Notes under the pieces: model-generated
Database searches by the model: none
The model's input: only the letters and a program-made list of their open reading frames with translations
What the model was told of the DNA's origin: nothing
Made by a program: the position numbers and the translations under genes
Assembly (NCBI RefSeq): GCF_902150025.1
Contig: NZ_CABFVS010000024.1
Span: forward strand, 1 to 64,000
Length of the DNA stretch: 64,000 nucleotides
DNA from: Bartonella massiliensis
Lineage (GTDB): Bacteria; Pseudomonadota; Alphaproteobacteria; Rhizobiales; Rhizobiaceae
Reading direction: 5' to 3'
In this document: piece after piece, positions 3,150-19,445 of the stretch
Numbering within the stretch: the first letter of the stretch is position 1
Layout: each line of letters opens with the position of its first letter

Positions 3150-4044
3150 AATATTCATCTTTAAAGCAATAATTGAATGAAAGTATTATGGAGGAGAGGG
3201 AGAAATGGGCTCTTTTGCCTATAATATAGCGGTATTCATCAGCTTGGACAGTGCAAGAGTGTTATGATCAGATGATGATATTGGGGAATGTTTAGAAATT
3301 TATCCAGTATAAAAAGTGGCAAAAATAATTTTGTTAGAATATCTGCTTTAACGATAACAAGCAGATTGCTTTCGTAGAACTGATTTTGATGAAACTTTAT
3401 TTTGATGCTTTTCATTTTATGATTTGTTTTGAGATGATATCTTCTAAAGTATTTCATTAATTCATTCGAACTATTGATGATAGGGCATTTAAGAGAATTT
3501 TTTTGTGTTTATTTAATTTTTTGCTAGAGAACTGAAAACTTTAATGTAGAAATTTTGTACATAAGCTTATATATCATGTGCGCGTTTCCTTGGATTTTTG
3601 TTGTGGTTAAAAAATAATGCGATTATATATTTTACTGTATCTCATAATGTGATATTTTATTAATATATTTTGGTCATTTGAATCTTAAAAATTATTCTCA
3701 TTTTGTTACATTTTTATTTTTGGAAAACGAGATAAATTGAATATTCTATCTCTTCAAGACTTATATTTCTGCGCGTTTTTTTAAGATCAGTGCTCTAGTG
3801 CTTTGTGTTATAGCTCTCAGCATTTGTGGAATAAATCTTTAAAGAGATCGTTATTCTCAAGAGTATTTTTTATTGTTTGTTCTTTCTTTACATAAAATAC
3901 AAAACATATTATTAATACTGTCATTTACCAGAAAAAATAATAAAATAGCTTTGCTTATTTTATTCTTATTGTATTTAATTCGCAGTTTATTGTTTTGCCA
4001 GCATTTTTTGTTTTTTTGTTGAGAAAAGAAAGTTTTGAAAAGCA
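3150..4044. other. Intergenic region, possible remnant of a third lipoprotein copy
   Basis: No gene is recognised in about 900 bp. At 3190-3207 a good Shine-Dalgarno (ggaggagaggg) precedes an ATG that opens only 21 codons. The ribosome binding site resembles that of the lipoprotein gene just upstream, so this may be the leftover start of another tandem copy. The rest is very AT-rich and presumably contains the autotransporter promoter. Confidence 0.3.
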
Positions 4045-6798
4045 ATGATAATCAAGATATCTAATAATCGCTTGTATTCGTGTGTTTTTACAGCAGCTAT
4101 TTTTTCTTTTTTGTTAAATATAAATGTTGAAGCACAGTCGCACTCATTTGTAGCACTATCATGTGATGAAAACAAATTACCTTATGAATGCAGTGATGGT
4201 GAAAAACATACAATTAGTGATAAAATATATAAGTTCACGGGACCTGTTAAACTAAAGAATGGGGAGGAGAGTTCTCTCACATTGCCTGCCGTTATAGAAG
4301 TACAGGAGCCAAATACAGTTATTCAGGCAATACGTGTAGAGATTGAAGCTGCTGCGGGTATAGAAGATATTTATGGTGTGGTTGCATCACGAGGGGGAAA
4401 AATTATCTTGAGTGATTCAGCTTTTAAAAATCTGTCAATAGGTTTTAAAGCTGATAGCGGAGTAATTGAGATTGATCGTGGAACAATTAAGGCTTTTCAG
4501 GTTGCTGCTTATGCAGAGAAGCTAGGAGGATCTATTACGCTAACAGATACAAAAATGAAAGTAGAAGGCCAGGGGAATGATCGAGAGAGTGCTCTTTTCG
4601 TTAGTCATGATGCGAGTGTTCAAATGAAGGGGGGATCTATTGATGTGAATGATGCCGCTGCACTTTATGTAGGGAAAGGGGGACGTGCAACTTTAGATGG
4701 TGTTATCATTACTTCAAAACATCAAAAAACAGAAAATAAAGAAAATAAAAATGAAAAAATTGCGCATACAGTTTTCAATGTAAAATCGCAGAGCTCTGTT
4801 TATTTAAAAAATACGAATATTGTTTCTACAGATGTTCATATTTTAACAGTTGGACAAGATTTTAAAACACAATCTGATGTTGGAAGAGAAGGAAATTTTT
4901 TAATTTCACGGGTTAATATTGAAGATTCAACCATTAAGGCAATAGGGAACAAACATGGTATGCATTTTGAGATGGATGGGGAGAATAATGCATACGAGCA
5001 GGGGCTTGTCTTTTTGAAAAGGACAGCTTTTGAAGTTCTAGATGGAACAGCTATTCACAGTCATAACAGTCGCAGTTATATTGCAGTAACGGAAGGCACA
5101 AAAATTTCTGGTGATTTATTATTAACTGCTGAAAAAGGAGGAACTGTAGCAATTTTGGCCGATTCTTCTTCATTGATAGGAGGGACTCGTGTTGTCGATG
5201 ATTCTGTTGCTGAGCTTTATTTGACAGGAGGATCAAAATGGTTTTTGACAAGAAAAAGAGGGGTAGATTCGCACGTTGCAAATCGTACAAGTTCATTTAT
5301 TTCATTTGTAAAACTTTCTGATGGTTTTATTGCTTTTGAAACGCCAATGTTTCAGGAATATCAGACACTTTATATTGGGAAGGGAGAGAAAGAAGTTTAT
5401 AGTGCGCAAGATAGGGCAGATATTTATCTCAATACATATCTTGGGAATGATGGTTTGCTCGATAATAAAAAGACTGATCGCCTTTTGATTCATGGTGATG
5501 TTTCTGGAAAAACAACAGTTTATGTGCAATTTATTCTAGAAAGTCAGGGGGAGGTAGAAAAGGGTGAAAATGCTCATAGTATTTCACTTATTCAGGTTTC
5601 TGGAAAAGCAGCAGAGGATTCTTTTCAGTTAGATCGTGCTTATATTGCATTAGAGGGGGCGCCTTACCAATATTATCTTCATGCCTATGGTCCAGCTTCT
5701 TCTCTTGGGAATGCACAAACTTCTCAAAGATTGGTTGAAGGAGAGGGAGATTTTTGGGATTTCCGCCTTGAAAGTAAATATATTCAGCCTGCTTTAGGAA
5801 TGTCGGCTAGTCCTCATTCTGATTTAAAGATTAGGGACGTTGTTCCACAAGTTCCGACCTATCTTCTGTTACAAAATGCTTTGTTTCATGTGGGGATCAT
5901 GGATATCAGTAATCAACAAAAGCGGTTACAAGATATGCGATCTACTTCTCGTCAGTTATTAAAAGTTGAAGGGGATTTTGCTTTATCTGTTCAGGGTTAT
6001 GGTGGGAGTTATCGTTATGTCTCAGATTTGTCTCTCCTTGAATATGGGTACGATGGTAATGTTGATTATAATGCTGTAGAAATAGATATTTTACTTAAAA
6101 CAATAGAAAGAGCATCTAGTACGACATCTTTTGGAATTATGGGAACCTATGGAAAGCTTTCCTTACAGCCTTGTGGTGTGGAACAAAGTCAAAAGAGTCC
6201 GTTTAATAAATGGTCATTGACGGCATACGGTAGTATGGAACACAGCACTGGTTTTTATGTCGATGGTCTTTTATCTTATGGTTTGTTTAAAGGGGATGTG
6301 CTGACTCATGCTTGGGGTAAGGCGGCGACATTAAAAACAAATCCTCTGAATGTTTCGTTGTCTGTTGGTAAAGTGTTTATGACAGGGCGTGAAGGTTTTA
6401 TTTTTGATCCGCAGATTCAGCTTATTTATCAACATCTTCAATTTGATAAGTTTCGTGATATTGATGGATTTGATGTTGAGATGAAAAAAGCAGATCAATG
6501 GTTGATGCGTATTGGGGGGTATGTAAGTAAAATATTTAGGTCACATGAAAAGGATCGTATCATTTCTTTTAATGGCAATATTCATCTTGCACATCGTTTT
6601 GGTGAAAAACAATTTGCTCATCTAAAAGATGTTTTTCAGTTAGGTGCTTTTGGTTCTTCTTTAGAAACAGGTTTGGGTATTAAAGCGCAATTTTCTTCTA
6701 AAGTCACGCTTCATGGTGATCTTAGCTATCAGCATAAGTTAACTAAGGCAGGTTTTTCTGGTGTTCGTCTTTCTGGTGGATTGCGTTATCACTTTTAA
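4045..6798 (+). CDS. Autotransporter (type V secretion) outer-membrane protein
   Basis: A 917-residue autotransporter. Residues 1-31 form a Sec signal peptide (hydrophobic core, then VEAQS). The passenger, roughly residues 32-630, is made of repeating beta-strand-rich segments (G-G-x-I-x-L/T-D-S/T and DGVIITS patterns) as in pectin-lyase-like beta-helices. The last roughly 270 residues are the translocator barrel: a conserved VPTYLLLQNALFHVG entry, alternating aromatic strands, and a terminal strand ending R-Y-H-F, the usual C-terminal Phe for BAM recognition. The passenger is short of cysteine apart from a pair near residues 40-50. The architecture fits the inducible autotransporters of Bartonella thought to act at the host interface. 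The ligand is unknown, and no cleavage site or protease triad is visible. Confidence 0.93.
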   Translation: MIIKISNNRLYSCVFTAAIFSFLLNINVEAQSHSFVALSCDENKLPYECSDGEKHTISDKIYKFTGPVKLKNGEESSLTLPAVIEVQEPNTVIQAIRVEIEAAAGIEDIYGVVASRGGKIILSDSAFKNLSIGFKADSGVIEIDRGTIKAFQVAAYAEKLGGSITLTDTKMKVEGQGNDRESALFVSHDASVQMKGGSIDVNDAAALYVGKGGRATLDGVIITSKHQKTENKENKNEKIAHTVFNVKSQSSVYLKNTNIVSTDVHILTVGQDFKTQSDVGREGNFLISRVNIEDSTIKAIGNKHGMHFEMDGENNAYEQGLVFLKRTAFEVLDGTAIHSHNSRSYIAVTEGTKISGDLLLTAEKGGTVAILADSSSLIGGTRVVDDSVAELYLTGGSKWFLTRKRGVDSHVANRTSSFISFVKLSDGFIAFETPMFQEYQTLYIGKGEKEVYSAQDRADIYLNTYLGNDGLLDNKKTDRLLIHGDVSGKTTVYVQFILESQGEVEKGENAHSISLIQVSGKAAEDSFQLDRAYIALEGAPYQYYLHAYGPASSLGNAQTSQRLVEGEGDFWDFRLESKYIQPALGMSASPHSDLKIRDVVPQVPTYLLLQNALFHVGIMDISNQQKRLQDMRSTSRQLLKVEGDFALSVQGYGGSYRYVSDLSLLEYGYDGNVDYNAVEIDILLKTIERASSTTSFGIMGTYGKLSLQPCGVEQSQKSPFNKWSLTAYGSMEHSTGFYVDGLLSYGLFKGDVLTHAWGKAATLKTNPLNVSLSVGKVFMTGREGFIFDPQIQLIYQHLQFDKFRDIDGFDVEMKKADQWLMRIGGYVSKIFRSHEKDRIISFNGNIHLAHRFGEKQFAHLKDVFQLGAFGSSLETGLGIKAQFSSKVTLHGDLSYQHKLTKAGFSGVRLSGGLRYHF

Positions 6799-7536
6799 TC
6801 AATCTTTTTAAAAAATAATATATGTGATTTTTCAAATCTTATACTTTTGTTAAGAATTAAAAATATTGTTGGTACGGCATTTTAGTTCTTCTTTTGATAA
6901 TGACACCATGTGTTTTAATACATAGGAAAAGATCACCTTGTTTAATACTTTTTATCTGGTGGATGGGGGGCGCAAATATTTCAAAAAATTGTCGATGAAA
7001 CTCTAGATCTGTTTTATGTTGTTTTGGCTACAAATATATGAGATGTATTCGTCATAAGTTTTTTTAATAGCTGTATTATTATCCTATTATGTTGTAATAA
7101 TAACTATTGTTTGAGGTATGCTGATATCAAAAAGCAGACGGGATATTGGTTGCTGATTAGAAGGCTTTGTTATTAAGCAAAGATAGGTGATGTGTAAAAT
7201 GCACAGATTCATATTTTTGTGAGGTGTATTTTTTGCTTTGTTTTTTATGCTGTAAGGAGCATTTTAAAAACATGTGAGTGCGTGTAAATGCCTCGTTTTA
7301 GGTAGAAAGTATGCGGGATTATGGATAAATCATCACTATCTTGTTTGTTCAATAAATATGAAATACAATTCTTAAATCAGAGTGGAGTTGGGAAGTCTTT
7401 TTCCTTTTTTGAGGCGTGAGGAAAAGAGGTTGATCACGTTGAAAAAGTTTATTGCAAGTCTTTTTTATTATTTCAAATGTAGAAAATTTTGAAGAGTTTC
7501 TATTAAAATGTAGTTAAAAGTAGATCAGAAGCGTCC
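6799..7536. other. Intergenic region downstream of the autotransporter
   Basis: About 740 bp of AT-rich sequence. I find no open frame of useful length, no clear terminator and no RNA gene. It leads into prophage fragments. Confidence 0.4.
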
Positions 7537-9245: not shown

Positions 9246-10442
9246 ATGAATGATTTTCAGACTATTGTGCTTAATGATTCAGCTATAATTTTAATTAATT
9301 CAGTTTTTTACAGAATCAGAAAATTGAAACTGTTGCGGCAAAGCTTAATGTAGAGACAGAGATTTTAGCATCAGATTTTTCAACTTTGTTAAGAGAACTA
9401 GAAAAGAATGGTTTTCTTTTAAAGAAGGAAAATTTGATTAGTGCGTCAGATTCGATTTTTGATCTTAAAAAATTATGGGTGCCTGTAACACCTATTATAC
9501 ATATTATCCAGAATTGCAATAGCCCTTGTATCATGTGCGATTGCTGGAAGATTAAGGAAAAAAATTGGCATACTCCAGAAAGTTTAATACCCTTATTTAG
9601 AATGTTGAAAGAAAAAGGAGCTGCCTCAGTGATGCTTTCTGGGGGAGAACCTTTAATGCATCCGAAGCTTAAAGATATTTTATTAACGTTGAATGAACTA
9701 GGTTTACCTGTTGAATTAAATACCAATGGCATCTTATTGCATAAAAATTTATGGATTTTACAGTATGACATAAAAGAAATTGTTATTTCTATGGATTCGA
9801 CTAGTGTCCAAGGATATCATGATATACGGGGGCAAATAAATTTGATCGCGTGTGGAAAAACATTGAAACAGTTAAGAATCTTCAACCTTTGCAAAGTATA
9901 GGAATAAGAGCGACTGTTACCAAAGAGATTCTAGAAAATATTATTAATTTTATCGATTTTTGTATAAGCAAAGATGTCGATTATATCGGATTTAGCCCGC
10001 TCGATACGTCATCATTTAGTTTTTCTAGAAAAAATAATACAAAGGATCGATCTGAGGCTTTAAGAAACAAAACTTTTCCGCCAAATGCTTCACTTTTTCA
10101 TTTGAGAGATGAATTATCAAGGAAAGAATCCCCCTCCAGATTTATATAGATAAAAAGTTCCAAGAAAGGAAAATCTCATGGACGTCACAAAATTTTGTAA
10201 ATTGTATTAATTATTACTTAGGAGAAAATTCTACATACGTTTCGTCGCCATTAATGTGTTTATTTCCATTTTCATCCTTGGTATTGGACTATAATGGAGA
10301 TTTAAAAAATTGCTTTTATTCAGAAGCTTTTGGGAATCTACAAAATTATGAGGCAATAGATTGGTCTGCTCAAAGCGTTTTAAAATCTTTGAAAGAATCT
10401 GGCGCATGTAGCGGATGTCGTGGGAAGGTATTTTGTGGATAA
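9246..10442 (+). pseudogene. PqqD-like domain plus radical SAM/SPASM-type protein, frameshifted
   Basis: Pieced together, this encodes a roughly 400-residue radical SAM enzyme. The ATG at 9246 opens MNDFQTIVLNDSAIILINSV, which continues after a frameshift as QNQKIETVAAKLNVETEIL and LLRELEKNGFL. That is the pattern of PqqD/RiPP-recognition wing domains. Next comes the radical SAM core with the cluster motif C-x3-C-x2-C (CNSPCIMC, 9515-9538) and SGGEP near 9640. A Cys-containing C-terminal region follows (MCLFPF, NGDLKNC, CSGCRGKVFCG), like an auxiliary-cluster SPASM domain. Three frameshifts occur, at T6 (9304-9309), G5 (9828-9832) and C5 (10130-10134). One added base at each restores the frame. 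The stop overlaps the start of the MFS-kinase gene. The family points to peptide or small-molecule modification; the substrate is unknown. Confidence 0.85.
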
Positions 10443-12219
10443 GATTAAGCAATTTAAGATTTATAGTGTTAGCAAGTCTACTGCTCTAGTGGTTGCTATT
10501 TTACCACTTTTTTTGTCGGAAAAATTGCATTTGTCGCAAGCGGATATTGTTTTAATAGGTAGTTATTTTTTATTGCTTCCTTTGATCTTAGAAGTCCCCT
10601 TGGGTTTATTATCAGATGTTTATGGAAGTAAGCGCGTTATTTATATTGGGCTGTTTTTCTTTCTTTGCGGTTTTTTAGCTCTTTTTATGAATTATGCATA
10701 TTTTGCTTACGCCACTTATTTGTTGTGTATTACATTAGCAGCCGCTTGTTTCTCAGGTGCGGAAGATAGTTTACTCTTTTCTGTAGTACCAAAGCATCGC
10801 ACACTGTTTTCTGTTAAGTCCGAAGTGGCTGCTGTTACCTATAGTGTGACAACGGTACTTATTTTTTTAGGGGGAATACTTTATTATGTGCATCCTGCAT
10901 TGCCTGTGATTTTTCAAGTCCTTTCATTAATTTTTGCTATTTTTATGTTTTCAAAACTGACGAAGGGATTAGATAGTTTTCATATCAACGCTCATCCGAG
11001 TATTTTCACAGTTATGTGCGCCAGCCGTAAAGAAGTCAAAAATCCTTATCGCTTCACTCTTATTTTTTTAAGTGCAGTTTCAGCTTTTGCTATTTTGGTT
11101 AATAATCGAACTGTTTCTATCGCATTTTCTGATTTTTTGCCATTTCAACCTGCTATTTTGGTTTCAATTATTTTTATCATTGGGAATTTTTTTTCAGCAA
11201 GTTCCAATATATTGTTTCAGAAGTATTTTTCAAAGTTTCAAAATCCTATTTTTCCCGTCTTAATGATTGGTTGTATGGTAACGATTGCTTTTTTTCTCAT
11301 GTCATTTCAAATCATTGTGGCTCTTATATTAGGATTTTTACTGCTATGTGTTTTTAAATCTGCTTATCGATCTTATCTGTCGTCTCTTCTTATAAATTCA
11401 CTGATTGATCCCAAAGCTATCGCGACTGTTTTATCATTTACAGCCATTATTACAGCTGTTGTATCCTTTGCATTCAGTTTTTTATACGGTCATATTTTTT
11501 CAACATTCTGGCAAGCTAATTTGTGGTTGGCAGTGGTTATGGCTGTGATTTTTGGGGTGTCTGCTTTAATTATTTTTGTCAGAAAACAAGAAATCATTTG
11601 GTTACAGCCTGAAAATGCACAATCGTCAAAACAACATTTCTTGAAACGCAAGCATCAAGAGTTTTGCTATGGGCAAATTTATCCGGAAGCATCGTGCATT
11701 AATGAAAACATCAAGGATGGCTCTTTTCGACAAAGTCTCTATCCTGCACCAAATTTGATAACACTTTGCGATGAAGTAGTCGAATGGGAGTTTATCCGGG
11801 GTACTGTATTGAGCCAAATGGATTTGCTACATCAAAAGGCGATTATTGATCAAATCAATAAGATCTTTCAAGATCGATTAAGCAAGAATATAATCTTATC
11901 ACATGGAGATTTACATCCTGATAATATCATTGTTACTCCTGATAATTCTTTTATGGTAGTGGATTGGGATTTATGTCAAGACGCCAGTCCGGAATTGGAT
12001 ATCTTAACATTTTTCACCAGTCCAAGATTATCTCTCAATTTAGAAGAACGGATAGACTATATTTCTCATTTGCTGTCTATATCAAAGGATGAAGCTTTAC
12101 CAATGATAAAAGCGTTTGTAGCTAAAAAAATTTCTGATCTTTGTTTATACCAAAATATTTTCATGAAACAATTAGTATTGGATTATATGAACTTGAATGA
12201 GAAATTTCATGGGCGATAA
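10435..12219 (+). CDS. MFS transporter fused to an APH-type phosphotransferase domain
   Basis: Intact, 594 residues from the GTG at 10435. That start has Shine-Dalgarno gggaagg six bases upstream and overlaps the stop of the radical SAM gene. An upstream GTG at 10420 is possible. Residues 1 to about 390 are a 12-helix major facilitator domain, with the loop-2/3 signature GLLSDVYGSKRV near residue 60. After a basic linker (KQHFLKRKHQ), the C-terminal roughly 190 residues match the catalytic half of aminoglycoside/choline-kinase-like enzymes: HGDLHPDN at residues 490-497 (catalytic Asp and Asn) and VVDWD at 508-512 (metal-binding Asp). The usual N-lobe nucleotide-binding part is short or missing. 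Transport plus phosphorylation of one compound, such as self-protection or export of the cassette product, is inference. Confidence 0.85.
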   Translation: MDKIKQFKIYSVSKSTALVVAILPLFLSEKLHLSQADIVLIGSYFLLLPLILEVPLGLLSDVYGSKRVIYIGLFFFLCGFLALFMNYAYFAYATYLLCITLAAACFSGAEDSLLFSVVPKHRTLFSVKSEVAAVTYSVTTVLIFLGGILYYVHPALPVIFQVLSLIFAIFMFSKLTKGLDSFHINAHPSIFTVMCASRKEVKNPYRFTLIFLSAVSAFAILVNNRTVSIAFSDFLPFQPAILVSIIFIIGNFFSASSNILFQKYFSKFQNPIFPVLMIGCMVTIAFFLMSFQIIVALILGFLLLCVFKSAYRSYLSSLLINSLIDPKAIATVLSFTAIITAVVSFAFSFLYGHIFSTFWQANLWLAVVMAVIFGVSALIIFVRKQEIIWLQPENAQSSKQHFLKRKHQEFCYGQIYPEASCINENIKDGSFRQSLYPAPNLITLCDEVVEWEFIRGTVLSQMDLLHQKAIIDQINKIFQDRLSKNIILSHGDLHPDNIIVTPDNSFMVVDWDLCQDASPELDILTFFTSPRLSLNLEERIDYISHLLSISKDEALPMIKAFVAKKISDLCLYQNIFMKQLVLDYMNLNEKFHGR

Positions 12220-12742
12220 TATTGTAATTTGTAATGAAAATTGCAGTGCGGGCTGCAATCATTGTCCGTATTCGATGGAATGTATGGTGAGAGATGACGC
12301 GTTGCCTGAATCTTTATATACAATAAATGACATAAAATCTGATTTTATTATTCTTTCTGGTGGAGAGCCTTTTGAGCTCGATAATGATTTACTTCATAAA
12401 TATACTTGTATGTGTCTCATTTGTAAAAAATATTTTCGGATTGCAACAGGGGGGCACATCTATATTCAACCATATTTGAAGCTATTAAAGAGTAATCCGT
12501 TCTTTTTAGGGATACAAATAGGCACAGATGTTATTTCAGAGATAGGAAATCTAGACAGTAAAAAATATAAACAAAAGTGGGTGCGTAACATAGAATGTAT
12601 GAAAAAAGATAGCGTACCATATAGTGTGACGATTACTTTATCGGAGAGATTTGATTTGGCAGAAGTGCTAGCTCTAATATGTATCGCTACTCCCGAGTTC
12701 ATTTCAGTTAAATATGATACGGGATTTTTTTTCTGGCTGTGA
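12209..12742 (+). CDS. Short second radical SAM protein, probably frameshifted near its end
   Basis: The start at 12209 overlaps the last 11 bases of the MFS-kinase gene; an in-frame ATG also exists at 12197. The cluster motif CSAGCNHC supplies the radical SAM cysteines at residues 12, 16 and 19. ILSGGEPFEL follows as the SAM-binding GGEP motif, and IATGGHIYI and GIQIGTDV look like later barrel strands. The open frame ends right after a T8 run (12725-12732). Removing one T continues it as FSGCEIKYGYTHQSLHQ to a TAA at 12780-12782, exactly where integrase-derived sequence begins. The product is therefore about 180-190 residues, a minimal radical SAM core, and may be 3'-truncated by the integrase fragment. 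No PqqD or SPASM part is present. Confidence 0.75.
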   Translation: MGDNIVICNENCSAGCNHCPYSMECMVRDDALPESLYTINDIKSDFIILSGGEPFELDNDLLHKYTCMCLICKKYFRIATGGHIYIQPYLKLLKSNPFFLGIQIGTDVISEIGNLDSKKYKQKWVRNIECMKKDSVPYSVTITLSERFDLAEVLALICIATPEFISVKYDTGFFFWL

Positions 12743-12773
12743 GATAAAATATGGATATACGCATCAGAGTTTA

Positions 12774-12857
12774 CACCAATAAATAGGAACCATCACACTA
12801 TTTGCCAGTCCGCAATGTTGCGACAGATCTTGCATTAAGACGGTTCATAAGAGCCAT
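12774..12857 (-). pseudogene. 5' fragment of a phage integrase (tyrosine recombinase)
   Basis: The minus strand from ATG 12857-12855 reads MALMNRLNARSVATLRTGK, then an in-frame TAG, then CDGSYLLV. The same N-terminus, in diverged form, opens the integrase pseudogenes at 33346 (minus) and 43697 (plus). Only about 28 codons remain; the catalytic domain is gone. It points at the 3' end of the second radical SAM gene, so it marks one edge of the cassette. Confidence 0.75.
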
Positions 12858-13040
12858 TTTTAGTCCTTTCTTATACAAATTTGATCCACACATTCGTCCC
12901 GCTTTTGACGAGCAAGGGAATGATTTTGATTGATTCAAGATAGATAAGTTTGAAATGAGAGAATCTTACGTTATTCGAAGGTCTAATTCAATATGTAAAA
13001 CAGTAAATTATTATTCTAAATCAATACCTTATCAAGTTCA
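12858..13040 (-). repeat. Dispersed integrase-upstream repeat, copy A
   Basis: The sequence upstream of the integrase fragment is closely similar to 33347-33525, and the reverse complement of 43557-43696 matches its inner part. Shared blocks include cttatacaaatttgatccac, gattgattcaa and taaatcaatacctt. It presumably carries the promoter and perhaps the attachment region of the integrating element. Its outer end lies about 30 bases from the ndvA stop codon. Confidence 0.8.
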
Positions 13041-13073: not shown

Positions 13074-14861
13074 TTATGACGCTATGGCTTCATGTAAGGG
13101 GATGACGTTTTCATTTTCTCCCTCTCTTTCTGGTGGTTGTATGGTTAAAGCACTTGCTTTTAAAAATTTAGAAAAACGGCCTCCTTTATCGATCAATTCT
13201 TGAAAGCTTCCTTTTTCAATTAAGTGACCATGTTCCAGAAAGAGTACCATATCAGCATTGCATACTGTTGAGAGGCGATGTGCTATAATGAAAGTAGTGC
13301 GGTTATGGCTTATGCAATCGAGAGCCTCTTTGACACGTGCTTCAGTTTCAACATCAAGAGCGCTTGTTGCTTCATCGAGAATGAGAATAGGGGCATTTTT
13401 TAAAACAGCACGTGCAATTGCTAGTCGCTGTTTTTCTCCCCCTGATAATTGGGATCCTCGTTCGCCTACCATGGTGTTATAACAATCAGCTTTTTTTAGA
13501 ATAAAATCGTGAGCTTCTGCTATTTTTGCTGCCTCATAAAGTTCTTCGTTTGTTGCATTTGCTTTTCCTATTGAGATATTGTCATGAATACTGCGGTTGA
13601 AAAGACCCGCATCTTGAAACACTGTCGCTAGAGATTTTCGTAAAGATTCACGATTGATCGAGCGTATATTTATTCCATCAATGGAGATATGCCCAAAGCT
13701 AGGATCATAGACGCGCTGCAGCAGATTGATTAATGTTGTTTTTCCAGCTCCTGTTGGTCCTACAATCGCAACAGTTTGTCCTGCTTCAACCTCAAAGGAA
13801 ATATCAAAAATACCTTGAGAAGAATTTGGGAATTTATAGGTAACGTGATGAAATTGTATAGCACCCTTAACATTTTGGAGAGAAGGAAGATTTTGTGGTT
13901 CGTTATTATGAAAGGTTGAGTCTTCCATTTCAAAAAAATCTTGCAGTTTTGCTTGTGAGGATATCGCACAATTAATAAAATTGCTCATTTGATCTAGACG
14001 GCTAATCATGAGTTGTGCAAACCCAACAAAAGCAACGACTTCACCTACTCTTAATTGACCTCTTGCAACAAAAAAAGCTCCAAGGAGAAGAACACAAACG
14101 ATTGAAACTGTTGAAGCCATTCGGTTTAAGCCACTGGCAAGCGCCCACCAATTGAGAACAGGATTTTGTGCTTTAAGAAGGTCATTTGTATGCTGATGCA
14201 GTATAGAAGTTTCTTCTTTTATTCGGTTATAACTTTGTACAATGGAAACATTAGAGATTGAATCACTGACATGTTTAAAAAGATTATGATGGTAACATTC
14301 TACAGCGGCTTGTCCGTCTTTTGTTTTTCGCATCACTAAACGGGCAATTAATCCATAGATGATGGCAAGCACAACCAAGACTGTTGAAAGACGCCAATTC
14401 ATGCTAAAGGCTGTGGGGATGAGAACCAATAAGGCGACAAGCGTTGAAAGGTGTTGGCGCATAAAATCAAGCCATATGCTTGACATGGCGTCTATCGCGC
14501 GCAAAAGTGTATGGAGCGCGTTAGAAGTTCCACGTTGTTGATGCCACATTAAAGGCATGGCAATGATACGTTCAAAAGATTCTGTTAAAACCGTTAAACG
14601 ACGTCTATGGGCTAAGCGGTCTGCACCACGAGCCACAAGGACATAAGCGATAATATGGGAAAGACCAAAACAAACCCAAATGGCAAGGGTAGGGATGATC
14701 CCTGATTTTTCTGTAATGGAATCAATAACGAGTCCAAATAAAATAGGTTCTGCAATGGTGATAATCGCTAACATAACATTAGCGGTACAGATTAAAAGAG
14801 ATGCCTTTTTTTCTCTGTTTAGGTAAGTGAGAACACGTGCATAAGTTTTGAATAAGGACAC
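13074..14861 (-). CDS. ndvA: Cyclic beta-1,2-glucan exporter NdvA (ABC transporter)
   Basis: A 595-residue fused ABC exporter. The N-terminal roughly 300 residues are a six-helix membrane domain with the NdvA/ChvA-like segment ARGADRLAHRRRL. The ATPase domain has Walker A GPTGAGKTT, signature LSGGEKQR, Walker B LILDEATSALD and the switch His in IIAHRLSTV. The family exports cyclic beta-(1,2)-glucan to the periplasm, where it aids osmoadaptation and host interaction. The start is GTG at 14861 with a ggag about nine bases upstream. It converges with the accessory cassette at 9.2-12.9 kb and is transcribed away from the pseudouridine synthase gene. A general lipid/glucan exporter is the alternative, but length and sequence character fit NdvA well. 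Confidence 0.9.
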   Translation of the reverse strand: MSLFKTYARVLTYLNREKKASLLICTANVMLAIITIAEPILFGLVIDSITEKSGIIPTLAIWVCFGLSHIIAYVLVARGADRLAHRRRLTVLTESFERIIAMPLMWHQQRGTSNALHTLLRAIDAMSSIWLDFMRQHLSTLVALLVLIPTAFSMNWRLSTVLVVLAIIYGLIARLVMRKTKDGQAAVECYHHNLFKHVSDSISNVSIVQSYNRIKEETSILHQHTNDLLKAQNPVLNWWALASGLNRMASTVSIVCVLLLGAFFVARGQLRVGEVVAFVGFAQLMISRLDQMSNFINCAISSQAKLQDFFEMEDSTFHNNEPQNLPSLQNVKGAIQFHHVTYKFPNSSQGIFDISFEVEAGQTVAIVGPTGAGKTTLINLLQRVYDPSFGHISIDGINIRSINRESLRKSLATVFQDAGLFNRSIHDNISIGKANATNEELYEAAKIAEAHDFILKKADCYNTMVGERGSQLSGGEKQRLAIARAVLKNAPILILDEATSALDVETEARVKEALDCISHNRTTFIIAHRLSTVCNADMVLFLEHGHLIEKGSFQELIDKGGRFSKFLKASALTIQPPEREGENENVIPLHEAIAS

Positions 14862-16856: not shown

Positions 16857-17874
16857 ATGGGATCATTGTTGATTGACGTTAATAACGTCTCAAAAACATA
16901 CCGCAGCATAAACAGTGCCACTGGTTTTACCAACAAAGTTGTTTCTCTTTTTAGGCCTACTTATTCAAATTATCAGGTACTGAAAGAGATCAGTTTTACT
17001 CTCTTTTCAGGGAAAGCACTTGCAATCGTTGGTTCCAACGGAGCGGGTAAATCAACATTGATTAAAATACTTTCTGGCATACAAGCTGCTGATGAGGGTG
17101 ATGTTACAGTCCTAGGTTTTCATCCTTATAAAGCCAAAAAAATTTGTTTAAGTCTCTCAGTGTTGTCTTTGGTCATAAAAATTGCTTATGGTGGGATTTA
17201 TCTTTACGCTACAGTCTGGATATGGCTCGTCCTTTATATGATCTTGAAGCGCGCTCTTTTAACCGCGATCTTAAAGAAATTGCCGAGCTCTTGAACATTG
17301 AGCATATCATGGATAAGCCTGTGCGTATGTTAAGCCTTGGTGAGAGAGTAAAAAGCGAATTAGCATTTAATTTGTCTTTTAGACCTCAATTATTGTTTCT
17401 TGATGAGCCAACGATTGGTCTTGATATTACGTCTAAACATGAAATCAGGGAGCTGCTTAAAAAACTCAAAAAAGAGCAAGGTATGGGATATATCATCACC
17501 AGTCATGATATGGGAGACATTGATGGTTTGTCGATGATATTCTTCTTTTGCATAAAGGAAAAAAGAAGTTTCATGGCGATATTGATACATTGAAAGAGAT
17601 GATCCCCTCAAGTGTGAGAATAACGCTTTTTTGTGAACATTTGCCAACAGCTTCAACGCTTATAAAAGACATTGATGAACTCGCAATAAAATCGTCTACT
17701 TCTTTAAAAGAAAAATACTTTAATGATGAAAAGTGTACATTAGAAATTTCACTGTCGCGTGAAGATGTGCCACGTTTCATAAGAAAAATCGCAACAGAAA
17801 TTAACTGTCCTTTCTCTGTATCTACTCCCTCACTTGAAGAGATTCTCCGTGTTAAATTTAAAGAATTTCTCTAA
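16857..17874 (+). pseudogene. ABC-2 exporter ATPase subunit, two frameshifts
   Basis: The ATP-binding subunit of a three-gene ABC-2 exporter, in three frames. Frame one (start ATG 16857, Shine-Dalgarno gaggag) covers Walker A GSNGAGKST and ends near an A7 run at 17136-17142. One extra A continues it as KSLSVVFGHK and on to the signature MLSLGERVKSELA, Walker B LLFLDEPTIGLD and switch His in ITSHDMGDID. A second +1 shift near 17528-17532 (ggtttgtcg) gives DDILLLHKGKKKFHGDID and the C-terminal domain to TAA 17874. The enzyme would be about 340 residues. It resembles the COG4586 type paired with COG4587/COG3694 permeases. As read it cannot make a full ATPase. Sequencing undercalls in short runs are a real alternative. 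Confidence 0.88.
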
Positions 17875-18673
17875 CCATTGCTTTGCTCTCTTTCTCTTTC
17901 GTAAAAATGGGTTGCTCACAATTCTCAGTGACAGGGCAATGTTTTTTACCGATGTTGTTATGGGGACGCTATCACCTTTTGTCATTCAACTTCTGTTGTG
18001 GAATGCCCTTTTTTCTGATACGAACAACAGCATAAACGGTTTTGGCTTTCATGATATGATGTATTATTATGCCTTTGCCTTAATTTTCTCACGCTTAAAT
18101 AATGGTTATGGCATCATTCAATCCTTCTCTCAGCATGTTAAAGAAGGGAAATTAGAAGTTTATCTCACCAAACCATTTAGTTACATGATGCAAATGCTGT
18201 TTACTTTTTTGGGTGAAAGTGTGCTCTATGTCTTGCCCTTACTGGCTGTTTTTACTGTAAAGCTTAGTTTATCCTTTGAGAATATTTTAGGATTTGTTAT
18301 CGCTTTTCTGTTGCTTTTCCTCATTCTTGTTTTCTCGCAATTGCTGTGTTTTTTCCTCTCCTTTGCCATTGCTTTATTGAGTTTCTGGGTAATTGAATAC
18401 AATATTTTGCTCTCTTTTAGTATTCTCAGTTCAGCACTTTTAGGTGGTACTCTTCTACCCCCATCTTTTTGGCCAACATGGCTCATTCCATTGATGCAGT
18501 TTAATCCTTATCGTTTCACCATATCGGCTCCTGCCGAATTTCTTTCAATGCGTGATGTGAAGGTATTTCAGCAATTTATTTTGGGTAGTGTTTTTTATAT
18601 TTTGTGTCTTTTATTCTTCATTCAGATTGTTTGGAAAAAAGGGATGAAAGCCTATCATGGAGCGGGGGGATGA
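17849..18673 (+). CDS. ABC-2 type exporter permease (COG4587-like)
   Basis: About 275 residues with six predicted membrane helices, a long cytoplasmic HVKEGKLEVYLTKPFS segment and a conserved GTLLPPSFWP loop. These features belong to the uncharacterised ABC-2 permease family usually encoded between the ATPase and a second permease. The start is uncertain: GTG 17849 has gaagag upstream and overlaps the ATPase 3' end, and TTG 17834 is also in frame. The frame is intact even though the ATPase gene is broken. Substrate is unknown. Confidence 0.82.
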   Translation: MLNLKNFSNHCFALFLFRKNGLLTILSDRAMFFTDVVMGTLSPFVIQLLLWNALFSDTNNSINGFGFHDMMYYYAFALIFSRLNNGYGIIQSFSQHVKEGKLEVYLTKPFSYMMQMLFTFLGESVLYVLPLLAVFTVKLSLSFENILGFVIAFLLLFLILVFSQLLCFFLSFAIALLSFWVIEYNILLSFSILSSALLGGTLLPPSFWPTWLIPLMQFNPYRFTISAPAEFLSMRDVKVFQQFILGSVFYILCLLFFIQIVWKKGMKAYHGAGG

Positions 18674-19445
18674 AGTGAAAACAATCCTTTACTTTATCAG
18701 CATGAATATGCGCCGACAAATTGTTTACGGTAAAAATTTCACGGGAGAATTTATTCTTTCTCTATGCTATTATTTTATGCAATTTATCTTTATTGATAAA
18801 ATCTCTCGCTTTTCAGGAAACATTGGAAACTATAGTAGAGATGAAATTCATCTTATTTTTGTTGTCTTCATTTTACTTGGGATATTTTTGAATATTTTTA
18901 CCAGTTCTATTGAAACATTTTTTGAAAAAGTTGCAGAGGGTAAAATTGATGGATATCTGACAAAGCCGGTTTCAGTTTGGCTGTTAATCCTGTTTGGCTG
19001 GTGCAAACCTCTTTATCTGATCAAGCTCTTTATTGTTTATATGAGTGCATATGCATTTGTCTCGCTACCAGATATGTCAGAGATAAAGCTGAAATGGCTT
19101 TTCTTTATTGTTGCAGTCGTTTGTGTTTTTATCGTCAATTTATGTTTTTTCATGATGTTCAACTTTATAACATTCATCACTAGCCGTAAGATGCTCGTTG
19201 CCTATTTTCATGCAATGCTTTACCAACTTTCCTTTATCCCCATAGCAATTTATCCCTTAAATTTTGTGAAATGGCTGTTGTTTTTGCTACCTCTAGTTTT
19301 TTCTTCTTCCTTGCCTGTGTCCCTGTTGCTTGGTAAAAACGAATGGCATATCGGCTATCTTTTATTGAGCGCTTTTCTTTCCATTGCCATGACTTTTATG
19401 GCCTATAAAAAAACAATTCGTAAATTTAACGGATTAGGGGGATGA
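18657..19445 (+). CDS. ABC-2 type exporter permease, second subunit (COG3694-like)
   Basis: 262 residues, six predicted helices. It carries the same type of amphipathic VAEGKIDGYLTKPVSVW segment as the first permease, at the equivalent position (about residue 90), so the two permeases are distant homologues expected to form a heterodimer. It overlaps the upstream permease by 17 bases if ATG 18657 is used. GTG 18675, directly after the upstream stop, is also possible. The protein ends with FNGLGG*. It forms an operon with 16857-18673. Function depends on the frameshifted ATPase or on another ATPase supplied in trans. Confidence 0.82.
   Translation: MERGDEVKTILYFISMNMRRQIVYGKNFTGEFILSLCYYFMQFIFIDKISRFSGNIGNYSRDEIHLIFVVFILLGIFLNIFTSSIETFFEKVAEGKIDGYLTKPVSVWLLILFGWCKPLYLIKLFIVYMSAYAFVSLPDMSEIKLKWLFFIVAVVCVFIVNLCFFMMFNFITFITSRKMLVAYFHAMLYQLSFIPIAIYPLNFVKWLLFLLPLVFSSSLPVSLLLGKNEWHIGYLLLSAFLSIAMTFMAYKKTIRKFNGLGG

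What the first reader, a model, noticed from the sequence alone, without database searches (positions are those of the whole stretch)
9246..12782. PqqD/radical SAM - MFS-kinase - radical SAM cassette
Three adjacent, overlapping genes: a radical SAM enzyme with an N-terminal PqqD-like domain and a Cys-rich SPASM-like end, an MFS transporter fused to an APH-type kinase domain, and a second, minimal radical SAM protein. Their overlaps (stop of one on start of the next) show a single transcript. PqqD-like domains bind leader peptides in RiPP maturases, so the set looks like a peptide-modification and export module with two radical SAM enzymes. I know of no described system with this exact combination. 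No precursor peptide is obvious; candidates would be very small frames in 8.8-9.25 kb or elsewhere in the genome. Seen: motifs and overlaps. Inferred: peptide natural product and joint function.
Basis: partly seen in the sequence, partly recalled or inferred. Interest (0 to 1): 0.82.

Follow-up and report, generated by a model that had tools for sequence, protein, structure and literature searches.

The report
Decayed peptide-antibiotic cassette, transporter-kinase kept
The window holds the wreck of a small mobile gene set that, in related Bartonella, looks able to make a chemically modified peptide; here the peptide gene and one enzyme are gone, another is broken, and only the transporter-kinase is clearly whole, possibly kept as protection against the relatives' product.

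Summary
Motifs and gene order are real, but the window's cassette is a remnant. Gene 1 (radical SAM/SPASM) is 5'-truncated and frame-broken; gene 3 (small radical SAM) has an altered end; the 599-aa MFS-kinase is whole. Sixteen of 71 genus genomes hold the cassette. Two are complete: five genes on 5.46 kb, adding a 29-aa peptide gene with ribosome site and YxxPxV motif, a hairpin, and a 330-aa, possibly enolase-superfamily protein. The window lacks both added genes. Distinct frameshifting indels: 29 in the other three enzyme genes, two in the MFS-kinase, both in one locus; substitution ratios do not separate them. A 51%-identical MFS-kinase in another genus has no radical SAM neighbour. Best reading: a mobile RiPP cassette whose export/self-protection gene outlives biosynthesis. 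Product and protection are inferred.

The parts
9249..12785 (+). Remnant of the mobile cassette: everything in the window homologous to the 5.46-kb cassette of relatives
   Evidence: blastn against the G247 copy: window 9249-12711 at 98.1% and 12700-12785 at 100%; upstream part and gene 4 absent
9249..10442 (+). Gene 1, radical SAM/SPASM enzyme with N-terminal PqqD-like (RRE) region: broken (5' truncated, three frame changes)
   Evidence: three pieces at 93, 92 and 81% identity in three frames; frame from 9246 stops after 35 codons; 3 frame-changing indels
9302..9901 (+). Longest gene 1 piece: part of the RRE-like region and the radical SAM core (CX3CX2C at 9515, GGEP at 9641)
   Evidence: Pfam Radical_SAM E 4.5e-14; motifs
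10254..10442 (+). Gene 1 SPASM end
   Evidence: TIGR04085 E 8.5e-5, 22.9 bits against a 27-bit cut-off; Pfam SPASM E 0.0042, 17.8 bits against 21.5; both below cut-off
10420..12219 (+). Intact MFS transporter fused to an APH/RIO-type kinase domain, 599 aa (HGDLHxxN at 11902)
   Evidence: Pfam MFS_1 E 2.4e-14 and APH E 1.8e-7; open frame without stops
12197..12742 (+). Gene 3, small radical SAM protein (CX3CX2C at 12242, GGEP at 12359); last part differs from relatives because of a frame-changing deletion
   Evidence: Pfam Radical_SAM E 3.9e-5, below cut-off; 1 frame change against the 204-aa relatives
12786..13025 (.). Island-end sequence, about 240 bp; related sequence lies in the flanks of other cassette loci, next to the integrase in G260
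   Evidence: 86% identity to the G217 flank 3623-3862, a stretch that matches the flanks of other loci including G260; integrase identified in G260
13074..14861 (-). Host ABC transporter gene bordering the remnant; the same flank as in G217
   Evidence: Pfam ABC_membrane/ABC_tran; G000_dn 266-2071 matches G217_dn at 92%

Best explanation
The window carries a decayed copy of a mobile RiPP cassette. In the complete form, a 29-aa precursor (MSYKKPQVIGTVNSATLTCYKPLVRDRKK) would be bound through its YxxPxV leader by the PqqD-like domain of gene 1. Gene 1's radical SAM/SPASM core would then modify the C-terminal part (TVNSATLTCYKPLVRDRKK, invariant in the seven copies). The small radical SAM (gene 3) and the enolase-superfamily-like enzyme (gene 4, perhaps an epimerase or isomerase) would carry out later steps. 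The MFS-kinase would export and/or phosphorylate the product and so protect the producer. In the window, precursor and gene 4 are gone and gene 1 is broken, so the product should not be made, yet the MFS-kinase is whole; the likeliest reason is that it still gives immunity to product made by relatives. SHOWN: cassette anatomy, decay, retention of the MFS-kinase frame, island genes beside a complete copy. INFERRED: the RiPP chemistry, the order of steps, the antibiotic nature of the product, and the protective role.
For: Precursor gene with ribosome site just upstream of gene 1 in 7 of 16 loci; 5 codons with synonymous change against 2 replacements plus one ATG-to-GTG start, residues 11-29 invariant. 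Hairpin between precursor and gene 1 in all 7 despite base changes, -18.5 to -25.5 kcal/mol for the segment. N-terminus of gene 1 aligns with 20 PqqD domains in register (HHalign probability 14.9-19.4%, P 0.0018-0.0012) and 30 shuffles reach 2.1% at most. Best PDB match is 5v1q, chain name 'Radical SAM', aligned from residue 16, E 1.7e-9 (that it is SuiB is recalled). Overlapping genes. Distinct frameshifting indels per well-aligned kb: gene 1 0.64, MFS-kinase 0.07, gene 3 1.81, gene 4 0.95. MFS-kinase full length and open in 15 of the 16 cassette genomes. Searching with gene 1, gene 4 and the precursor region found no further cassette without the MFS-kinase. Integrase and DUF3987 genes adjoin the complete G260 copy.
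Against: No NCBIfam model matches the precursor, and none matches the N-terminal 97 residues; Pfam's best there is a winged-helix model of MCM8 (E 0.0081) and not PqqD, both hits below cut-off. My own PqqD profile gives only 1.8 bits, E 0.013 for one sequence. AlphaFold models were unusable (pLDDT 34.3 and 33.2). pN/pS does not separate decayed gene 1 (0.276) from the MFS-kinase (0.27) in the same nine decayed loci, so only indels and truncations show retention. Gene 4's enolase match is weak (E 0.0047; Pfam E 0.3; HHalign 2.8%), and its third metal ligand and last lysine did not align. No product, target or immunity assay exists. The protective role rests on retention alone.
Confidence: 0.62

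Rival explanations
1. The MFS-kinase is kept for its own reason (uptake or salvage of a nutrient or nucleoside that it phosphorylates on entry, or resistance to an unrelated drug) and was only passively part of the cassette.
For: A 51%-identical copy in another genus stands without radical SAM genes, beside an ATP-grasp and a second MFS gene and an integrase. The frame is preserved in loci where biosynthesis genes are broken.
Against: In the genus sample the 16 genomes with a real fusion are the same 16 that hold gene 1 sequence, in the same order where examined; the other 55 lack it, apart from one weak partial MFS match.
Confidence: 0.3
2. The cassette makes a small redox cofactor or signal (PQQ- or mycofactocin-like) rather than an antibiotic; the MFS-kinase moves or traps it.
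For: PqqD-like region, SPASM enzyme, very short precursor and few enzymes resemble cofactor RiPPs; a group of RREs that includes PqqD reads W/Y/LxxP/L/I motifs (PMC12710340, passages seen).
Against: The precursor has no glutamate and does not end in Val-Tyr. No PqqB/C-like hit in the cassette proteins. It lies beside island genes, is found in 16 of 71 genus genomes, and 14 of these 16 copies have at least one broken or missing part.
Confidence: 0.12
3. It is an anti-phage module carried by a satellite-like island, with gene 1 as a viperin-type enzyme.
For: Gene 1 matches PADLOC viperin models (E 4.9e-16); island integrase and DUF3987 genes adjoin it in G260.
Against: The match covers the radical SAM core only (residues 98-250); NCBIfam viperin score 47.7 against a cut-off of 180, and W_rSAM and MoaA models score higher. 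A precursor gene and RRE-like region have no place in viperin systems as I recall them.
Confidence: 0.06
4. The breaks in the window are assembly errors and the set is intact and functional there.
For: The window's genome is a draft of 90 contigs, and frame changes can be sequencing errors.
Against: Loss of the start of gene 1, the precursor and gene 4 is not a base-calling error. The own genome gave no match to gene 4 or the precursor region. Breaks or losses occur in 14 of 16 copies, also in near-complete assemblies (G235 one contig; G222, G223 and G262 two contigs each).
Confidence: 0.03

Closest known systems
RRE-containing radical SAM/SPASM RiPP maturases (streptide type, TIGR04080; SuiB recalled as 5v1q)
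   Same: N-terminal RRE-like region, radical SAM core, C-terminal Cys-rich end, short precursor directly upstream; best PDB match 5v1q and a TIGR04080 match over residues 15-261
   Different: Below the curated cut-off in each of the 25 NCBIfam rows shown of 57; no KxxxW core in the precursor; a second minimal radical SAM gene, an MFS-kinase fusion and an enolase-like gene instead
PQQ biosynthesis (PqqA-PqqD-PqqE)
   Same: PqqD-like region joined to a radical SAM/SPASM enzyme; small precursor with an aromatic-xx-Pro leader motif
   Different: No Glu in the precursor; PqqE model 33.2 bits against a cut-off of 381
Lasso peptide leader/RRE recognition (YxxP)
   Same: YxxPxV in the leader; YxxP is named there as the lasso recognition motif (PMC12710340, passages seen)
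   Different: No lasso cyclase or leader protease domain among the Pfam hits of the four cassette proteins
Enolase-superfamily dipeptide epimerases / DgcA racemase
   Same: KxK, DxN and EQP positions align; an ADE and a later lysine are present by eye
   Different: Very weak scores; third ligand and last lysine unaligned; no RiPP use named in the two paper searches, which gave one paper
APH/RIO/Bud32-type small-molecule kinases (e.g. spectinomycin phosphotransferase)
   Same: HGDLHxxN...DWD core
   Different: Fused to the C-terminus of an MFS transporter; N-lobe looks short by eye

Membership tests
RiPP biosynthetic cluster | Ribosomal precursor peptide gene beside the modifying enzyme | tested here: met
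   29-aa gene with ribosome site in 7 of 16 loci, mostly synonymous changes; absent from the window's genome. That it is expressed and modified is not shown
RiPP biosynthetic cluster | Leader-binding RRE (PqqD-like) domain | tested here: inconclusive
   In-register PqqD profile match above all 30 shuffles but low probability; no PqqD family hit; structure model unusable
RiPP biosynthetic cluster | Modified peptide product | not testable with these tools
   needs mass spectrometry
Radical SAM superfamily (gene 1) | CX3CX2C and GGEP, Pfam score over cut-off | tested here: met
   Radical_SAM 58.4 bits against 29.5 in the intact copy; motifs in the window
Radical SAM superfamily (gene 3) | CX3CX2C and Pfam score over cut-off | tested here: inconclusive
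   motifs present; 25.6 bits against 29.5
PQQ pathway | PqqA Glu and Tyr to be cross-linked (recalled); PqqE over cut-off | tested here: not met
   precursor has no Glu; PqqE 33.2 bits against 381
Mycofactocin | Precursor ending in Val-Tyr (recalled) | tested here: not met
   precursor ends RDRKK
Lasso peptide | Asparagine-synthetase-like cyclase and leader peptidase in the cluster (recalled) | tested here: not met
   no such domain among Pfam hits of the four proteins
Viperin (pVip) | Score over the curated viperin cut-off | tested here: not met
   NF038283 47.7 bits against 180
Enolase superfamily (gene 4) | Two-domain match with KxK, three acidic metal ligands and a second lysine | tested here: inconclusive
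   KxK, DxN and EQP align; third ligand and last lysine do not; HHalign 2.8% against shuffle maximum 0.2%
MFS + APH fusion | Both domains over Pfam cut-off on one frame | tested here: met
   MFS_1 53.4 against 33.4, APH 31.6 against 23.2

The most novel reading that the evidence does not exclude
A new RiPP type on Bartonella mobile islands: a 29-aa YxxP-leader precursor is worked on by an RRE-radical SAM, a minimal radical SAM and an enolase-superfamily epimerase, with immunity from a single MFS-kinase fusion; the lineages that lost production keep only that gene whole and live as immune non-producers.
Probability: 0.33. Interest if true: 0.8.

Novelty: new variant of a known kind. Interest (0 to 1): 0.6.

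Why it matters
Ten papers of the searched library hold both 'Bartonella' and 'radical SAM'; by title and abstract start none is about such a cassette, though I opened none of them. If the reading holds, it gives this genus a peptide weapon, a defined precursor and enzyme set that can be tested in E. coli, a RiPP use of the enolase fold that I found in no paper searched, and a natural series of complete, broken and transporter-only loci that shows how a self-protection gene outlives its pathway. The MFS-kinase fusion would be a candidate immunity type to look for elsewhere.

Tried and rejected

Wider relatives: two viral-contig scans, which reach close relatives only, found none for gene 1 or gene 4. 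Plasmids: gene 1 met only a radical SAM core at 26.6% identity (six records, one of them annotated agnC7); the MFS-kinase, gene 4, gene 3 and precursor met none. Phages: gene 1 gave three partial matches at about 27%; gene 4, the MFS-kinase and the precursor none. Order sample, gene 1: 1 of 397 genomes, the window's own. Phylum sample, MFS-kinase profile: 1 of 398, its own. Class sample, gene 1: 7 of 385, its own and six that match the radical SAM core only at 25-31%. Genus of G076: one genome held, G076 itself. These are samples; absence elsewhere is not shown.

First pN/pS estimate withdrawn: decayed gene 1 first gave 0.527; after masking badly aligned stretches it is 0.276, no different from the MFS-kinase at 0.27. 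I do not claim selection on the MFS-kinase from substitution rates.

Precursor in the other-genus locus L034: none recognised by eye among small frames; tblastn gave one 11-residue match, E 0.09, taken as chance. Rfam: no match on L084 3000-9000. Promoter scan: 37 found against 26.9 expected (sd 4.4), not used.

Parts used: 20 of 25 PqqD places and 20 of 49 listed enolase places went into the profiles. Rows dropped: G253 (weak partial MFS match only) and G208/G237 (30-base matches) were left out of cassette counts. In one search only indels with good flanks and away from gene ends were counted, and stop codons were not. MFS-kinase frame changes counted in G214, G222 and G251 were not counted as breaks, because one search shows these frames open from residue 2-3.

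Ten paper searches were made. Searches held 27 and 120 papers, of which 8 and 15 were listed; neither was followed up. Passages of two papers were seen; no paper was read whole.
Full report
WHAT IS IN THE WINDOW. The MFS-APH protein is a single open frame of 599 aa, with both Pfam domains over cut-off. But gene 1 is not an open gene. From the proposed start at 9246 the frame stops after 35 codons, similarity to the intact gene lies in three pieces in three frames, and there are three frame-changing indels. Gene 3 carries one frame change and a different end.

RELATIVES. One scan of genome contigs gave 10 named Bartonella loci with the MFS-kinase at 96-98% identity, among them B. grahamii, B. 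elizabethae, B. tribocorum, B. florencae and B. gabonensis. In the genus sample of 71 genomes, 17 match the MFS-kinase: fifteen (the window's included) full length without stops, G217 broken, and G253 with only a weak partial MFS match. Gene 1 is found in 16 of 71, the same genomes without G253. Gene 4 is found in 8 of 71, all among the 16. In the family sample of 199 genomes, 20 match the MFS-kinase: the window's own, G076 of another genus with a full-length relative (51%), and 18 with short matches in the MFS half only.

THE COMPLETE CASSETTE. In G247 and G260 the cassette is whole. It spans 5.46 kb, positions 3096-8560 of L084. Its parts are: (a) a 29-aa frame, MSYKKPQVIGTVNSATLTCYKPLVRDRKK, behind a GGAGGA ribosome site; (b) a 12-pair hairpin; (c) gene 1, 412 aa; (d) the MFS-kinase, overlapping gene 1; (e) gene 3, 204 aa, overlapping the MFS-kinase; (f) gene 4, 330 aa, overlapping gene 3. 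The window matches only positions 3794-7374 of this copy, so precursor, hairpin, the start of gene 1 and gene 4 are missing. They were not found elsewhere in its genome at the thresholds used.

THE PRECURSOR. The precursor region was found in 14 of 71 genomes: two are 30-base matches of chance type, five end at or within ten bases of the peptide's start, and seven span it. Among the seven, five codons show synonymous change, two residues are replaced (K4Q, G10S) and one start is GTG; residues 11-29 are invariant. Variable sites are 19 of 81 upstream, 8 of 90 in the peptide gene, 8 of 58 in the hairpin stretch and 0 of 49 in the start of gene 1. The hairpin folds in all seven, -18.5 to -25.5 kcal/mol for the segment, despite base changes. 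YxxP is named as a characterised lasso recognition motif, and W/Y/LxxP/L/I motifs as those of a group of RREs that includes PqqD (PMC12710340; passages seen).

GENE 1 N-TERMINUS. Against 20 PqqD domains taken from family genomes, windows starting at residues 1, 16 and 31 give HHalign probability 14.9, 17.2 and 19.4% (P 0.0018 to 0.0012), with residues 40-71 on PqqD columns 44-75. The window from 46 gives 5.5%, those from 61 onward 0.4% or less, and 30 shuffles 2.1% at most. This is weak in absolute terms but in the right place and register. An HMMER profile of the same domains gives only 1.8 bits. No Pfam or NCBIfam PqqD hit appears; Pfam's best for the 97 residues is a winged-helix model of MCM8 below cut-off. 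The AlphaFold model was unusable. The best PDB match, 5v1q (chain name 'Radical SAM'; that it is SuiB is recalled), aligns from residue 16.

GENE 4. Only weak matches: NF042940 DgcA at E 0.0047, Pfam MR_MLE_C at E 0.3, PDB 3r0k 'Enzyme of enolase superfamily' at E 0.054. HHalign to 20 enolase-superfamily proteins gives 2.8%, shuffles at most 0.2%; HMMER gives 5.5 bits. In a joint alignment the KxK, DxN and EQP positions coincide; the third metal ligand and the last lysine do not, although an ADE and a YKP follow in the sequence. The two lysines and the enolate mechanism of the superfamily are described in PMC5808125 (passages seen). I hold the enolase label at about 0.7, from the motif pattern.

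DECAY AND RETENTION. Against the G247 copy (itself counted), gene 1 is undisturbed in 3 of 16 loci, gene 3 in 4 of 16 and gene 4 in 4 of 16, while the MFS-kinase is open in 15 of 16. Counting distinct frameshifting indels with good flanks: gene 1 has 10 in 15.5 kb of well-aligned sequence, MFS-kinase 2 in 28.6 kb (both in G217), gene 3 13 in 7.2 kb and gene 4 6 in 6.3 kb. The loci were not chosen by the MFS-kinase alone: gene 1, gene 4 and precursor queries found no further cassette. Against this, substitution ratios do not separate the genes: in nine decayed loci pN/pS is 0.276 for gene 1 and 0.27 for the MFS-kinase, with overlapping bootstrap ranges. Decay may be too recent for substitutions to show it.

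MOBILITY. Beside the complete G260 copy lie a tyrosine integrase in two adjoining frames (one part below the Pfam cut-off), a DUF3987 protein and a DUF7146 protein, and a 3.9-kb island stretch is repeated at 99.3% on both sides of the cassette. Only G260 was scanned with Pfam; other Bartonella loci are judged by their DNA similarity to these flanks. By shared flanks the 16 loci fall into groups: G214/G222, G223/G245, G250/G262/G263, G247/G249/G260/G218 (island sequence shared; some contigs are too short to place), G000/G217, and the rest. The window's remnant is followed by a 240-bp stretch also found beside the cassette elsewhere, and then by a host ABC transporter gene.

THE DISTANT COPY. 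In G076 the MFS-kinase stands beside an ATP-grasp protein and a second MFS protein, with an integrase and a phage lysozyme nearby. tblastn of gene 1, gene 3 and gene 4 against the 19.9-kb stretch found nothing at E 1, and it has no CX3CX2C in any frame over 80 codons.

HOW IT MOST LIKELY WORKS. Shown: anatomy, decay pattern, island genes beside a complete copy. Inferred: the RRE holds the leader; gene 1 modifies the invariant C-terminal part; gene 3 and gene 4 finish the product, gene 4 perhaps by epimerising or isomerising a released fragment; the MFS-kinase exports and/or phosphorylates it, protecting the cell. In the window this gene alone survives whole, which fits a self-protection gene useful against producing neighbours. 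The main rival is an independent use of the MFS-kinase.

NOVELTY. Four paper searches aimed at such a cassette gave 1, 0, 10 and 0 papers; by titles and abstract starts none describes it, and none was opened. Two enolase/epimerase searches gave the same single paper, on peptide epimerases. A search for Bartonella with natural-product clusters and genomic islands gave two papers on other organisms. Papers outside this library were not searched. I rate the cassette a new variant of a known kind (RRE-radical SAM RiPPs), with a possibly new immunity type.

Noticed in passing
L034 7482-11694 (G076): Divergent MFS-kinase beside an ATP-grasp protein (best model NF002563 at E 3.9e-22 but 78 bits against a cut-off of 625) and a second MFS gene, near an integrase and a phage lysozyme: a different possible biosynthesis/export set.
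   Followed up: partly
L070 1-19901 (G260): A 3.9-kb island stretch with integrase and DUF3987 genes is present on both sides of the complete cassette at 99.3% identity, as if the island were duplicated or the cassette inserted between tandem copies.
   Followed up: no
L084 3500-3545: Mostly conserved inverted repeat (TTTACAATTATAAAGTTGTAAA) upstream of the precursor gene (seen), possibly an operator.
   Followed up: no
L077, L072, L078 (G250, G262, G263) and L074, L075 (G222, G251): Two deletions shared by groups of genomes (one removing the precursor and the start of gene 1, one removing the precursor and about half of gene 1), useful for tracing the history of decay.
   Followed up: no
window 17834-19445: Two adjacent ABC-2-like membrane protein frames, perhaps a second export system near the remnant; judged by eye only.
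   Followed up: no
window 4045-6798: 917-aa autotransporter with an autochaperone domain upstream of the remnant.
   Followed up: no
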